A stretch of 5,318 bases of DNA from an uncultured Eubacterium sp. (GTDB lineage Bacteria; Bacillota_A; Clostridia; Lachnospirales; Lachnospiraceae), in NCBI GenBank assembly GCA_947653505.1, contig CANTHI010000293.1, positions 1 through 5,318 of the forward strand. The letters are read 5' to 3'. Below are positions 284-4,561 of the stretch, in pieces. The position numbers and the translations under genes were made by a program. Position 1 is the stretch's first letter; each line of letters starts with the position of its first letter. A model generated the notes under the pieces. The model worked only from the letters and a program-made list of their open reading frames with translations. It made no database searches and was not told the origin of the DNA.

Positions 284-3200
284 TCAGCTGCTCTTTTTGT
301 TCAGTTCCCTGTCCAGATTTTTCTGCGCCGTGGACAGCATCAGCTTAATCCGGTTCAGCTGGTTAACCTCGCTGGCGCCCGGGTCATAATCAATGGCGAC
401 GATGTTGGACAGCGGGTAGCGGTGGCGCAGCTGCTTGATGACTCCTTTGCCTACGATGTGATTCGGCAGGCAGGCAAACGGCTGGGTACACACGATATTG
501 TTTGTGCCGGAATGAATCAGCTCCAGCATTTCACCGGTTAAAAACCAGCCTTCACCAGTCTGGTTCCCTTCGGAAACGATCGGCGAGGCATATTCGGCCA
601 GCTTTTCGATCCGGACAGGCGGGGTGAAGTGGGTGCTTTTTTCAAATTCTTCTCTTGCGGCGCCGCGCAGCCATTCTAACAGCCGGATGCCCAGATGGGC
701 GATACGGACATTCTTTTTCGGATTGTTTAACATCTCTGTCTTAAAATCCTGATTATAAAACGTATAAAGCAAAAAGTCCATCAGGTCCGGTACCACAGCT
801 TCCGCGCCTTCTGCTTCCAGCAGCTCTACGAGATAATTGTTTGCCGCAGGCAGAAATTTTACTAAAATCTCGCCGACGATGCCGACACGCGGCTTTTTTA
901 TATCTTTTCTTGGCAGCTGGTCAAAATCCCGGATGATGTCGCGGCACAGCCGTTTAAACCTATGGTGTGACAAAATCCTGCTCTGGGAGATATAACTGAT
1001 GACCTGCTGCTTCCATTTTTCATGCAGTGCATCCGCGGAGCCCGGGACAGCCTCGTAAGGCCTTGTCGCGTACAGGCAGCGCATGAAAATATCTCCAAAC
1101 TCCAGAGCATACATGCCATGCTGCAGCAGTGCCGGCGAGAGTGTAAATCCCGGATTTTTTTCCAGACCGCTGACATTGATCGAGATTACGGGAACATGTC
1201 CGTAGCCTGTTTTTTCCAGTGCGCGCCGGATAAAGCCGATATAGTTGGAAGCACGGCATCCGCCTCCGGTCTGCGAGATGATAATCGCTGTCTTAGACAT
1301 GTCATATTTGCCGGAAGTCACCGCCTCCATAATCTGTCCCACAACCATCAGGGAAGGGTAGCAGGCATCATTGTTCACGTATCTTAGCCCGACGTTTACG
1401 GACGCACGGTTATCGTTGTCCAGAATCACAAGGTTGTATCCGCATGCCTGAAAAGCAGGCTCCAGCAGTTCAAAGTGAATCGGAGACATCTGCGGACAGA
1501 GGATCGTGTAGTTTTTGCGCATCTCTTCGGTAAAGATGGTCCGTTTAAAATCAGCTGTCTGGATCTCCCGCTTTTTGGGATGCTTTTTGCGGACACGGAT
1601 AGCGGCCAGCAGGGAGCGGATCCGGATTCTGGCAGCGCCCAGATTACTGATTTCGTCGATTTTTAAGCAGGTATAAATCTTTCCGGATTTGGTTAAAATA
1701 TCACTGACACAGTCCGTAGTAATCGCGTCCAGTCCGCAGCCAAATGAGTTTAACTGGATCAGGTCCAGATGATCCGTTGTTTTGACATAGTTTGCGGCTG
1801 CGTACAGACGGGAATGGTACATCCACTGGTCCATGACAATCAAAGGGCGCTCCACCGTACTTAAATGGGAGACGGAATCCTCCGTCAGTACGGCGATGCC
1901 GCAGGAGTTTAACAGCTCCGGAATACCGTGGTTGATTTCCGGATCGATATGGTACGGGCGGCCTGCGAGGACGATCCCGTGCCGGCCGGTTTTCTTTAGA
2001 TAAGCTAACGCCTTTTCACCCTGCTTCTGCATATCCGCACGGGCATTGCATAGCTCCTTCCAGCCGGCGTCAACGGCTTTTTCGATTTCCTGTTCCAGTA
2101 TTTTAAAACGTGGACAGAGCGCTTTTATCAGTCCTTTTTTCAACGTATCCGGATTTTTAAAGGAGAGGAATGGATTTAAAAATTCCACCTTTCCACTGGA
2201 AATCTCGTCGACGTTATTTTTAATATTTTCTGCATAGGACGTCACAATCGGACAGTTATAGTGGTTGTTTGCGTCCGGAAATTCGTCGCGCTCAAACGGG
2301 ATGCATGGATAAAAGATCACATCCGGCTTCTGCTGAATCAGCCATGCGATATGCCCGTGTGCCAGCTTGGCCGGATAGCATTCAGATTCGCTTGGAATGC
2401 TGTCGATGCCGAGCTCGTATATCTGGTGCGAAGACTGCGGGGAGAGGATCACCCTGAAATGCAGTTTTTTAAAAAATACCGCCCAGAACGGATAATTTTC
2501 GTATATATTGAGTACACGCGGGATACCGACTGTGCCGCGCACAGCCTCCTGTACAGACAGTGGCTCATAATCAAAAATCCGCTTATTTTTATATTCATAC
2601 AGGTTTGGAATATGATGCTTATTTTTTTCCCGGCCAATCCCGCGTTCACAGCGGTTGCCGGTAATATAGCGCCGGTTGCCGGAAAACTGGTTGATCGTCA
2701 GCAGACAGTGGTTGGCACAGTGCTGGCATCTGGCAAGCTTTGTATCAAAGGTCAGCGCATTGATTTCTTCAATCGAAAGCATTCTGGACGCAGTCCCCGC
2801 TTCGTAGCGTTCCCTCGCGATCAGCGCAGCGCCAAATGCGCCCATAATACCCGCAATATCCGGCCGGATGACATGAACACCGGATATTTTTTCAAAGCTG
2901 CGCAGTACGGCATCATTGTAAAAGGTCCCACCCTGTACGACGACCTTACGGCCGAGCTGCGAGGCATCCGTAAGCTTGATTACCTTAAACAGCGCGTTTT
3001 TAATGACAGAATAGGCCAGCCCCGCAGAAATATCCGCGACAGACGCGCCTTCCTTCTGGGCCTGCTTGACTTTGGAATTCATAAATACGGTACAGCGGGT
3101 GCCCAGATCAATCGGGTTTTTGGCAAATAAAGCTTCCTTTGCAAAGTCCTGTACGGAATAATTCAGCGACTTCGCAAAAGTCTCTATAAAAGAACCACAG

Positions 3201-4561
3201 CCAGAGGAGCAGGCTTCATTCAGCTGCACACTGTCCACGGTCTGGTTTTTGATTTTGATACACTTCATGTCCTGCCCGCCGATATCCAGAATGCAGTCCA
3301 CGTCCGGAGCAAAATAGGCAGCTGCATAATAATGGGAGACAGTCTCCACCTCGCCTTCATCCAGCATCAGCGCTGCCTTGACCAGCGCCTCACCGTATCC
3401 GGTAGAGCAGGAATAGACAATATGCGCTTTTTCTGGCAGCTGCGCATAAATCTCCTGTATGGAGCGGATGCAGGCGGCAAGAGGACTGCCGTTATTATTT
3501 GAGTAAAAGGAATACAGCAGCGAGCCGTCTTCTGCAATCAGCGCCGTTTTGGTAGTCGTTGAGCCGGCATCAATACCAAGATAGCAGTTCCCCTCATAGT
3601 CTGAAAGACTGCGGCAGGGTACCTTATTGCTCCGGTGTCCGGACAGAAACGCACGGTATTCTGCCTCAGACCGGAACAAAGGCTCCAGCCGTTCTACTTC
3701 AAATTCCATATGGATTTTTCCGGAGAGCTTTTCCAGCAGCTGTGAGAGCGGCAAAACAGCATCCTCTTTCCGGTTGAGCGCAGCTCCGGCCGCCGCAAAC
3801 AGATGGGAATGCTCCGGAATAATCGTATGCGCATCATCCAGCTTTAGCGTACGGATAAAAGCAGCGCGAAGCTCAGATAAAAAGTGCAGCGGTCCGCCCA
3901 GAAACGCGACATGTCCCCGGATTGGCTTACCACATGCCAGACCACTGATCGTCTGATTTACGACAGCCTGAAAGATGGAAGCAGAAAGATCTTCCTTTGT
4001 AGCGCCTTCGTTGATCAGGGGCTGGATATCAGTTTTGGCAAAAACGCCGCAGCGTGCCGCGATCGGATAGATTTCCTGATAATTTTTTGCATATTCGTTC
4101 AGTCCGCCGGCATCGGTCTGTATGAGCGAAGCCATCTGGTCAATAAACGAACCGGTACCGCCGGCACAGATGCCGTTCATACGCTGCTCCACGTTTCCGC
4201 CTTCAAAATAGATAATTTTGGCATCCTCCCCGCCCAGCTCAATGGCGACATCCGTCTGCGGCGCGGCATGCTCCAGGGCAGAAGCCACGCAGATGACCTC
4301 CTGCACAAACGGAATTTCCAGATGCTTTGCGAGTGTCAGCCCGCCAGAGCCGGTAATCACCGGCGCGACAGTAAGATTTCCCAGCTTTTCATATGCCTGT
4401 CTGATCAGGCTGCTTAAAGTTTCCCGGATATTTGCATAGTGTCTTTGATAATCTGCAAACAGCAGCTCGTCTGCCGCATCCAGAATAGCGATTTTTACAG
4501 TTGTAGAACCGATATCGATTCCAAGCTTACATAGTGTGTCTTTTTTCATATTCTCACTCAT
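284..4561 (-). CDS. Large fused acyl-CoA dehydratase activase / DUF2229 / HgdB-like Fe-S protein
   Basis: The protein is cytoplasmic, about 1425 residues, with no signal peptide or membrane segment. Domains, counting from the ATG at 4561: ASKHA ATPase 1 (about 13-263; GIDIGSTT 14-21, ELGGED 108-113, CAGGTGSF Cys132, Cys171, FLGG 220-223); ASKHA 2 (about 328-581; GIDAGSTT 329-336, DIGGQD 426-431, CSSGCGSF Cys451, Cys490); a Cys-rich linker (Cys612, 615, 619, 638); a DUF2229/HgdB-like region (about 679-990; SECYPAK Cys729, SFGCG Cys942); a second HgdB-like region (about 1018-1138; Cys1022, DACYPS Cys1067, GGGCR Cys1102); and a C-terminal segment with CTQPFACLPNH (1358-1368). Known: HgdC-type activators hold one [4Fe-4S] cluster between two subunits through such Cys pairs and use ATP to push low-potential electrons into an HgdB-type partner. 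Inferred: here both partners are fused. The substrate is unknown. Other possible starts are ATG 4549 and GTG 4588; none has a strong ribosome binding site. The gene appears monocistronic. Confidence 0.93.
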   Translation of the reverse strand: MSENMKKDTLCKLGIDIGSTTVKIAILDAADELLFADYQRHYANIRETLSSLIRQAYEKLGNLTVAPVITGSGGLTLAKHLEIPFVQEVICVASALEHAAPQTDVAIELGGEDAKIIYFEGGNVEQRMNGICAGGTGSFIDQMASLIQTDAGGLNEYAKNYQEIYPIAARCGVFAKTDIQPLINEGATKEDLSASIFQAVVNQTISGLACGKPIRGHVAFLGGPLHFLSELRAAFIRTLKLDDAHTIIPEHSHLFAAAGAALNRKEDAVLPLSQLLEKLSGKIHMEFEVERLEPLFRSEAEYRAFLSGHRSNKVPCRSLSDYEGNCYLGIDAGSTTTKTALIAEDGSLLYSFYSNNNGSPLAACIRSIQEIYAQLPEKAHIVYSCSTGYGEALVKAALMLDEGEVETVSHYYAAAYFAPDVDCILDIGGQDMKCIKIKNQTVDSVQLNEACSSGCGSFIETFAKSLNYSVQDFAKEALFAKNPIDLGTRCTVFMNSKVKQAQKEGASVADISAGLAYSVIKNALFKVIKLTDASQLGRKVVVQGGTFYNDAVLRSFEKISGVHVIRPDIAGIMGAFGAALIARERYEAGTASRMLSIEEINALTFDTKLARCQHCANHCLLTINQFSGNRRYITGNRCERGIGREKNKHHIPNLYEYKNKRIFDYEPLSVQEAVRGTVGIPRVLNIYENYPFWAVFFKKLHFRVILSPQSSHQIYELGIDSIPSESECYPAKLAHGHIAWLIQQKPDVIFYPCIPFERDEFPDANNHYNCPIVTSYAENIKNNVDEISSGKVEFLNPFLSFKNPDTLKKGLIKALCPRFKILEQEIEKAVDAGWKELCNARADMQKQGEKALAYLKKTGRHGIVLAGRPYHIDPEINHGIPELLNSCGIAVLTEDSVSHLSTVERPLIVMDQWMYHSRLYAAANYVKTTDHLDLIQLNSFGCGLDAITTDCVSDILTKSGKIYTCLKIDEISNLGAARIRIRSLLAAIRVRKKHPKKREIQTADFKRTIFTEEMRKNYTILCPQMSPIHFELLEPAFQACGYNLVILDNDNRASVNVGLRYVNNDACYPSLMVVGQIMEAVTSGKYDMSKTAIIISQTGGGCRASNYIGFIRRALEKTGYGHVPVISINVSGLEKNPGFTLSPALLQHGMYALEFGDIFMRCLYATRPYEAVPGSADALHEKWKQQVISYISQSRILSHHRFKRLCRDIIRDFDQLPRKDIKKPRVGIVGEILVKFLPAANNYLVELLEAEGAEAVVPDLMDFLLYTFYNQDFKTEMLNNPKKNVRIAHLGIRLLEWLRGAAREEFEKSTHFTPPVRIEKLAEYASPIVSEGNQTGEGWFLTGEMLELIHSGTNNIVCTQPFACLPNHIVGKGVIKQLRHRYPLSNIVAIDYDPGASEVNQLNRIKLMLSTAQKNLDRELNKKSS

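What the first reader, a model, noticed from the sequence alone, without database searches (positions are those of the whole stretch)
284..4561. One polypeptide carries both the ATP-driven activator and the electron-accepting reductase modules
In the characterised systems (HgdC with HgdAB, BadFG with BadDE, the double-cubane protein and its reductase) activator and acceptor are separate proteins that meet transiently. Here two ASKHA domains, both with intact phosphate-binding motifs and cluster Cys pairs, are followed by two HgdB-like regions on one chain. One chain could form the ATPase 'dimer' that classically needs two subunits, with its acceptor permanently tethered. The family is widespread in anaerobes, but to my knowledge its substrate is not established. 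No dehydratase subunit, CoA-transferase or electron-donor gene lies next to it in this window, so context gives no substrate.
Basis: partly seen in the sequence, partly recalled or inferred. Interest (0 to 1): 0.7.

Follow-up and report, generated by a model that had tools for sequence, protein, structure and literature searches.

The report
Single-chain anaerobic plasmalogen synthase (PlsA-PlsR)
A gut bacterium carries on one long protein both an ATP-driven electron pump and the enzyme it feeds, and this protein is most likely the known machine that makes vinyl-ether membrane lipids (plasmalogens) without oxygen.

Summary
One intact minus-strand gene (284 to about 4549-4588) encodes two BadF/HgdC-type ATPase domains, each with both cluster cysteines, then two HgdB-like modules. 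Fold comparison supports both ATPase domains and the first reductase module; the second module rests on weaker evidence.

Two premises fail. Activator and acceptor are not always transient partners: BCR- and MBR-type benzoyl-CoA reductases are permanent heterotetramers. And the substrate is probably known. The chain appears to be the one-gene form of PlsA-PlsR, which reduces the sn-1 acyl ester of phospholipids to a vinyl ether. Support: a review reports pls orthologues in Listeria; a 2.9-Mb Listeria record has a single matching place, 52.6% identical over 99%; an annotated Listeria copy keeps all 16 cysteine positions; natural two-gene forms break between the modules. C. perfringens PlsA/PlsR, the experimental reference, could not be compared.

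Most useful new point: 117 of 117 examined members of a distant single-chain subfamily, methanogens included, keep the cysteines of the ATPase cluster and first reductase cluster but lack the linker triplet and those of the second reductase cluster.

The parts
284..4588 (-). Single open reading frame, 1434 aa from GTG 4588 (1421 aa from the likelier ATG 4549): fused PlsA-PlsR-like protein
   Evidence: ORF; M14 invariant in 12 rows; P0002, 1421 aa
3764..4534 (-). ASKHA ATPase domain 1, about residues 19-275; Cys141 (4166-4168) and Cys180 (4049-4051)
2795..3589 (-). ASKHA ATPase domain 2, about residues 334-598; Cys460 (3209-3211) and Cys499 (3092-3094)
2639..2734 (-). Linker four-cysteine motif Cx2Cx3Cx18C (Cys621/624/628/647, residues 619-650); probable [4Fe-4S] site, zinc not excluded
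   Evidence: 111 of 113; triplet 0 of 117 in the sister subfamily; similar motif at the end of a stand-alone activator
1571..2638 (-). Reductase module 1 (DUF2229, HgdB/HadC fold), residues 651-1006; Cys737 (2378-2380), Cys779 (2252-2254), Cys951 (1736-1738)
305..1561 (-). Reductase module 2, residues 1010-1428; Cys1076 (1361-1363), Cys1111 (1256-1258), Cys1373 (470-472), plus Cys1367 (488-490)
   Evidence: a separate gene in five fetched genomes

Best explanation
This is the one-gene (fused) form of PlsA-PlsR, the anaerobic plasmalogen synthase. The two ATPase domains pair within the chain and hold one [4Fe-4S] cluster between Cys141/180 and Cys460/499. ATP hydrolysis lowers the potential of an electron on that cluster. 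The electron passes to three-cysteine [4Fe-4S] clusters in the two reductase modules, which sit together like the two subunits of HadBC or BzdNO. There it attacks the sn-1 ester carbonyl of a membrane phospholipid. A net two-electron reduction to a hemiacetal-like intermediate and loss of water give the 1-alk-1'-enyl (vinyl) ether. The linker four-cysteine site is the likely entry or relay point for electrons from ferredoxin. Shown here: domain order, cysteine inventory, folds of the ATPase domains and of reductase module 1 (in predicted models), orthology to the single match in a Listeria record, natural one-gene and two-gene forms. From the review: plsA/plsR reduce the acyl ester to a vinyl ether. 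Inferred: cluster types, electron path, radical chemistry, within-chain pairing, the role of the linker.
For: Review PMC9702350: plsA and plsR reduce the acyl ester to the vinyl ether; orthologues in Clostridiales, Tissierellales, Coriobacteriales and in Listeria; a single 'pls gene' EF1327 in E. faecalis. tblastn: 8 of the 36 plasmid-collection records with a match cover at least 80% of the chain; a 2.9-Mb L. monocytogenes record holds one matching place, 52.6% over 99%. All 16 cysteine positions are Cys in an annotated Listeria copy (L163), Collinsella and the Fusobacterium gene pair. Two-gene forms of about 980 + 430 aa break at residue about 1005-1010; the Soehngenia/Tissierellales group has this form. 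Split rows form one group and the sister subfamily another in an unrooted tree of 49 rows. Fold and cysteine evidence. That C. perfringens PlsAR is BCR/HAD-like is recalled from the abstract of Jackson et al. 2021; no call shows it.
Against: C. perfringens PlsA/PlsR, the experimentally tested pair, was not compared: no copy was reachable, and Jackson 2021 is not held. The Listeria locus L163 has an amino acid permease upstream, not the TetR gene that the review gives for E. faecalis 'and other facultative anaerobes'; Collinsella, which is not a facultative anaerobe by recall, has a TetR-like gene there. Databases still call it 2-hydroxyacyl-CoA dehydratase. None of the 19 neighbour families scanned is a lipid gene. 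Reductase module 2 was not matched as a whole to a solved HGD fold, and in the global mode of the profile comparison modules 1 and 2 did not align (probability 0.1).
Confidence: 0.85

Rival explanations
1. A single-chain 2-hydroxyacyl-CoA dehydratase (as databases name it): the chain activates itself once with ATP, then dehydrates a 2-hydroxyacyl-CoA many times.
Against: No dehydratase, CoA-transferase or fermentation family among the 19 neighbour families scanned; the profile of the reductase half matches no solved sequence at E up to 1; it is the single match in a 2.9-Mb Listeria record, a genus with no amino-acid fermentation of this kind that I know of (recalled).
Confidence: 0.06
2. A double-cubane-cluster reductase of small molecules with its reductase fused on.
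Against: A double cubane is held by six cysteines (BzdN, PMC11971306 section 8). Module 1 has three invariant ones, module 2 has four, one of which is lost in 2 of 6 two-gene rows.
Confidence: 0.03
3. A reductive activase for another protein's metal site, like the methanogenesis marker 15 ATPase, rather than an enzyme with its own substrate.
For: TIGR03286 (methanogenesis marker 15) matches both ATPase domains, far below its cut-off (135.2 against 455.75 bits).
Against: The reductase modules keep three-cysteine sets; the pls genes are reported to act on lipid.
Confidence: 0.05

Closest known systems
PlsA/PlsR of Clostridium perfringens and the single pls gene of Enterococcus faecalis (anaerobic plasmalogen synthesis)
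   Same: Most likely the same enzyme; one-gene and two-gene organisation and taxonomic spread agree
(R)-2-hydroxyisocaproyl-CoA dehydratase (3o3n) and its activator (4eht)
   Different: One chain; extra four-cysteine site; 13% identity to 3o3n_B
Class I benzoyl-CoA reductase (BzdNOPQ, MbdONPQ)
   Same: Two different ATPase units plus two different HGD units; profile of residues 21-1012 matches MbdQ best at domain 2 and MbdP best at domain 1
   Different: Four separate subunits; BzdN carries an [8Fe-9S] cluster with six cysteines, which this chain lacks
DCCP and DCCP reductase
   Same: Same folds
   Different: No six-cysteine set for a double cubane; activator and acceptor on one chain
About 1330-aa single-chain 'CoA activase' subfamily (P0122 group)
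   Same: Same order: two ATPase domains, DUF2229, further HGD-like region (Pfam)
   Different: 23 to 25% identical; linker triplet and module 2 cysteines absent in 117 of 117; function unknown to me

Membership tests
PlsA/PlsR anaerobic plasmalogen synthase | Orthology to genes reported as pls in named species | tested here: met
   Listeria monocytogenes: 52.6% over 99%, the only matching place at E up to 1e-5 in a 2.9-Mb record; Listeria lies on the 34-row side of the tree with the window (28 fused rows, window included, and 6 two-gene rows), against 15 sister rows
PlsA/PlsR anaerobic plasmalogen synthase | Exists as two adjacent genes or one fused gene | tested here: met
   Five split pairs in L122-L126, one in Fusobacterium, fused elsewhere
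PlsA/PlsR anaerobic plasmalogen synthase | Direct similarity to C. perfringens PlsA and PlsR | not tested
   No sequence of these proteins was reachable; the primary paper is not held
PlsA/PlsR anaerobic plasmalogen synthase | Makes vinyl ether lipid | not testable with these tools
   Needs lipid analysis
HgdC/BadFG-type ATP-driven activase | ASKHA fold with two cluster cysteines per domain and phosphate motifs | tested here: met
   TIGR00241 233.8 bits against cut-off 125.4 for the whole chain; domain 1 alone 110, domain 2 alone 136.1; cysteines 113 of 113; motifs 108 to 111 of 111
HgdC/BadFG-type ATP-driven activase | Two ATPase units bridge one [4Fe-4S] cluster | tested here: inconclusive
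   Model pTM 0.79 but no coordinates to measure distances
2-hydroxyacyl-CoA dehydratase component D | HGD fold with three cysteines per unit | tested here: inconclusive
   Module 1: fold and cysteines agree. Module 2: cysteines agree, fold not matched on its own
2-hydroxyacyl-CoA dehydratase component D | Acts on a CoA thioester | not testable with these tools
   Needs assay; Pfam HGD-D match of module 2 is below cut-off (22.2 against 28.4)
Double-cubane cluster protein (DCCP) | Six cysteines in one subunit for [8Fe-9S] | tested here: not met
   At most three and four conserved cysteines per module
Class I benzoyl-CoA reductase | Matches subunit models over their curated cut-offs | tested here: not met
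   TIGR02259 108.9 against 578, TIGR02261 60.1 against 312.85, TIGR03192 84.3 against 380.2

The most novel reading that the evidence does not exclude
The plasmalogen branch is a self-contained four-site electron machine on one chain: a built-in ferredoxin-like entry cluster in the linker, an ATP-driven cluster between two fused ATPase domains, and two open-site reductase clusters. The linker cluster and the second reductase cluster come or go together. This divides single-chain enzymes into a four-site lipid-reducing branch and a two-site branch of unknown substrate found in clostridia, Desulfonema and methanogens.
Probability: 0.4. Interest if true: 0.6.

Novelty: new member of a known kind. 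Interest (0 to 1): 0.38.

Why it matters
It turns an 'unknown substrate' protein that is common in gut Lachnospiraceae into a named activity, vinyl-ether lipid synthesis, and corrects its database name. It also gives a cluster-by-cluster map of an enzyme whose chemistry, ATP-driven reduction of a plain lipid ester, has little biochemistry behind it in what I could read. The map says which cysteines to change first, and the sister subfamily shows which clusters the fold can do without.

Tried and rejected
Double-cubane reading: rejected on cysteine counts. Benzoyl-CoA reductase membership: rejected on NCBIfam scores. Context for a substrate: the commonest neighbour family, found at 56 of 113 loci, mostly upstream and divergent, looks like a membrane protein with a zinc-ribbon end (rhomboid-like by my reading; no Pfam match). 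Representatives of 19 of the 40 listed neighbour families were scanned; the named ones include LysM, CorA, pyruvate kinase, an M16 peptidase, tRNA-guanine transglycosylase, a HemN-like radical SAM protein, LepA, a glutamyl/glutaminyl-tRNA synthetase, an ABC transporter ATPase, a PLP decarboxylase and Era-like GTPase; none points to lipid, and 21 families were not scanned. The window's own two flanking ORFs match none of these neighbours.

Papers. Searches for DUF2229, ASKHA with fused, activase names, SMU.438c and COG3580/COG3581 gave nothing on the function of this chain in what I opened; several listed papers were not opened. Opened: PMC11971306 (section 8 and passages), PMC11574389 (section 6 and passages), PMC9702350 (abstract, parts 1 and 2 of 3, passages), and passages only of PMC10134865, PMC7306483, PMC6952196 and PMC5495212. 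SMU_0438c of S. mutans, named an activator-related protein, rises 2.2-fold without manganese (PMC6952196), and a 'putative CoA-substrate-specific enzyme activase' of S. gallolyticus rises in contact with macrophage-like cells (PMC5495212); whether either is this protein was not established.

Limits of the counts. The 113 homologues come from loci picked by similarity, the first 80 by two peptide patterns from close relatives, and include the two sister-type rows L127 and L128; 97 remain when rows of 86% identity or more are dropped. The 117 sister sequences are those of the 120 listed best hits to one query that are 1300 aa or longer, not a random draw. The domain tree carries a long-branch warning. 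DUF2229 alone is not specific for this chain: it rings in 4 of 14 control genomes and in 179 of 199 genomes of the phylum.
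Full report
What is there. The minus strand of the window holds one uninterrupted frame, 284-4588, 1434 codons. The start is uncertain among GTG 4588, ATG 4561 and ATG 4549. The last is favoured because its Met is invariant in the 12 rows of A1 and the 100%-identical database protein is 1421 aa. The reported cysteine codons were checked in the DNA.

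Domains. ATPase domain 1 (about 19-275) and domain 2 (about 334-598) each match BcrAD_BadFG and TIGR00241 on their own; domain 1 alone stays under the TIGR00241 cut-off (110 against 125.4), domain 2 passes it (136.1). A profile of residues 21-1012 finds HadI, HgdC, MbdQ and DCCP reductase at domain 2, while MbdP of methylbenzoyl-CoA reductase matches best at domain 1. Domain 1 has GGED where domain 2 has GGQD, in 111 of 111 rows each. Residues 686-906 are Pfam DUF2229, in reductase module 1 (651-1006). Module 2 (1010-1428) matches DUF2229 at 6.3e-5 and HGD-D at 1.2e-4, both below the curated cut-offs. A local profile-profile match to module 1 pairs Cys1076 with Cys737 (53 columns, E 1.3e-4); in global mode the two did not align.

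Cysteine inventory. In 113 full-length homologues from fetched loci, Cys141/180/460/499/737/779/951 are present in 113; Cys621/624/628/647 and Cys1076/1111/1367/1373 in 111. The two exceptions, L127 and L128, belong to another subfamily. Cys762 is kept in only 66 of 113 and so is unlikely to be a ligand. Among six two-gene rows Cys1367 is lost in two while the other 15 positions hold, so module 2 has a three-cysteine core like module 1. In the model all six core cysteines of the modules stand one or two residues before a helix (model residues 135/177/349 and 474/509/771 against helices 136-151, 178-190, 350-364, 475-489, 510-524, 773-788). HAD subunits and BzdO likewise hold each cluster with three cysteines (PMC11574389 section 6; PMC11971306 section 8).

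Linker. A stand-alone activator of Eubacterium ramulus ends in a like motif, with 16 residues before the last Cys, so it appears to be a C-terminal extension of an activator. That activator lies in a run of genes with separate DUF2229 and HGD-D proteins.

Natural gene structure. In five fetched genomes the chain is two adjacent genes, about 980 and 430 aa, broken at residue about 1005-1010 (L122-L126); L122 is Soehngenia longivitae. Taking the first start codon, three pairs overlap by 4 to 29 bases and two are 36 and 77 bases apart. A Fusobacterium pair is similar. The six two-gene rows form one group in a quick, unrooted tree of 49 rows. In a draw of 199 genomes of the phylum, 179 have a DUF2229 match. 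By my count of the listed rows, 46 of the 199 have a high-scoring match of the fused type (three of them with shorter open frames, 1067 to 1288 aa) and 6 the roughly 1000-aa split form; 33 fused-type places and 5 split ones were fetched.

What it does. A review of bacterial plasmalogens (PMC9702350; abstract, two of three parts of the text and passages seen) states that plsA and plsR of C. perfringens encode reductases that turn the sn-1 acyl ester into the alk-1'-enyl ether. It says that orthologues occur in Clostridiales, Veillonellales, Tissierellales, Coriobacteriales and others, and in Listeria, and it names a single pls gene, EF1327, in E. faecalis. The review does not describe the domains in what I read; that PlsAR resembles benzoyl-CoA reductase and 2-hydroxyacyl-CoA dehydratase is recalled from the abstract of Jackson et al. 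2021, which is not held. The link was tested: in a 2.9-Mb L. monocytogenes record the window protein has one matching place, 52.6% identical over 99%. An annotated Listeria copy (L163), Collinsella and the Fusobacterium pair have Cys at all 16 positions. Of ten Escherichia records with a match the seven listed cover 33 to 36% of the chain (mostly yjiL-type activators). The window's nearest rows are Eubacterium and Lachnospiraceae.

Against it. C. perfringens proteins were not compared. Listeria lacks the upstream TetR gene that the review ascribes to E. faecalis and other facultative anaerobes. The 19 neighbour families scanned, of 40 listed, give no lipid link.

Sister subfamily. A search from L128 found a 1330-aa single-chain group with names from clostridia, Desulfonema, Desulfosporosinus, Methanolobus and Methanofollis. 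Of 117 full-length rows, 117 keep the four ATPase cysteines and the three of module 1; none has the linker triplet or any of the four module 2 cysteines, and position 647 is Cys in 2. No other column is Cys in over 80% of these rows. First and second ATPase domains of both subfamilies sort into two groups with one change each, so the doubled ATPase seems older than the split between subfamilies, subject to the long-branch warning of that call.

Mechanism. Proposed path: ferredoxin, linker cluster, ATPase cluster, module clusters, ester carbonyl, then loss of water. The ATP-driven step and the three-cysteine clusters follow the chemistry described for 2-hydroxyacyl-CoA dehydratases. The lipid substrate is from the review. 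Linker role, order of the two module clusters and radical steps are inference.

Verdict. A real, well-read observation whose open question has in all likelihood already been answered. What is new here is the cluster map, the linker motif and the linked absence of two cluster sites in the sister subfamily.

Noticed in passing
L162 (Eubacterium ramulus) 5403-11628, minus strand: Four genes that overlap or lie within 3 bases: a 1066-aa AMP-binding, phosphopantetheine and NAD_binding_4 reductase protein, a DUF2229 protein (305 aa), an HGD-D protein (382 aa) and an ATPase activator (319 aa) with a four-cysteine tail. It looks like an ATP-driven reductase tied to a carrier-bound substrate.
   Followed up: partly
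P0122-P0241; L127, L128: About 1330-aa single-chain relatives in clostridia, Desulfonema and methanogens with only the ATPase and module 1 cysteines; two (P0229, P0240) carry extra Pfam domains that I recall as methyltransferases.
   Followed up: partly
window 25-255, plus strand: 76-aa ORF that resembles a J-domain (LHRPDNGG, my reading); weak match to phrog_15863 (8.2e-7) and to two unannotated faecal phage records.
   Followed up: partly
window 4799-5317, plus strand: Divergent ORF, at least 173 aa, cut by the window end; no match in Pfam, NCBIfam, PHROGs or plasmids, nor among the neighbours of relatives.
   Followed up: partly
L166 2021-2731: A TetR-like gene sits directly upstream of the fused gene in Collinsella, as the review reports for E. 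faecalis; it is absent at the Listeria locus L163.
   Followed up: no
NZ_CP030101.1 and NZ_LR134399.1: PLSDB records labelled as Listeria plasmids of 2.9 Mb and 0.39 Mb; by size the first looks like a chromosome and the second may be a piece of one.
   Followed up: no
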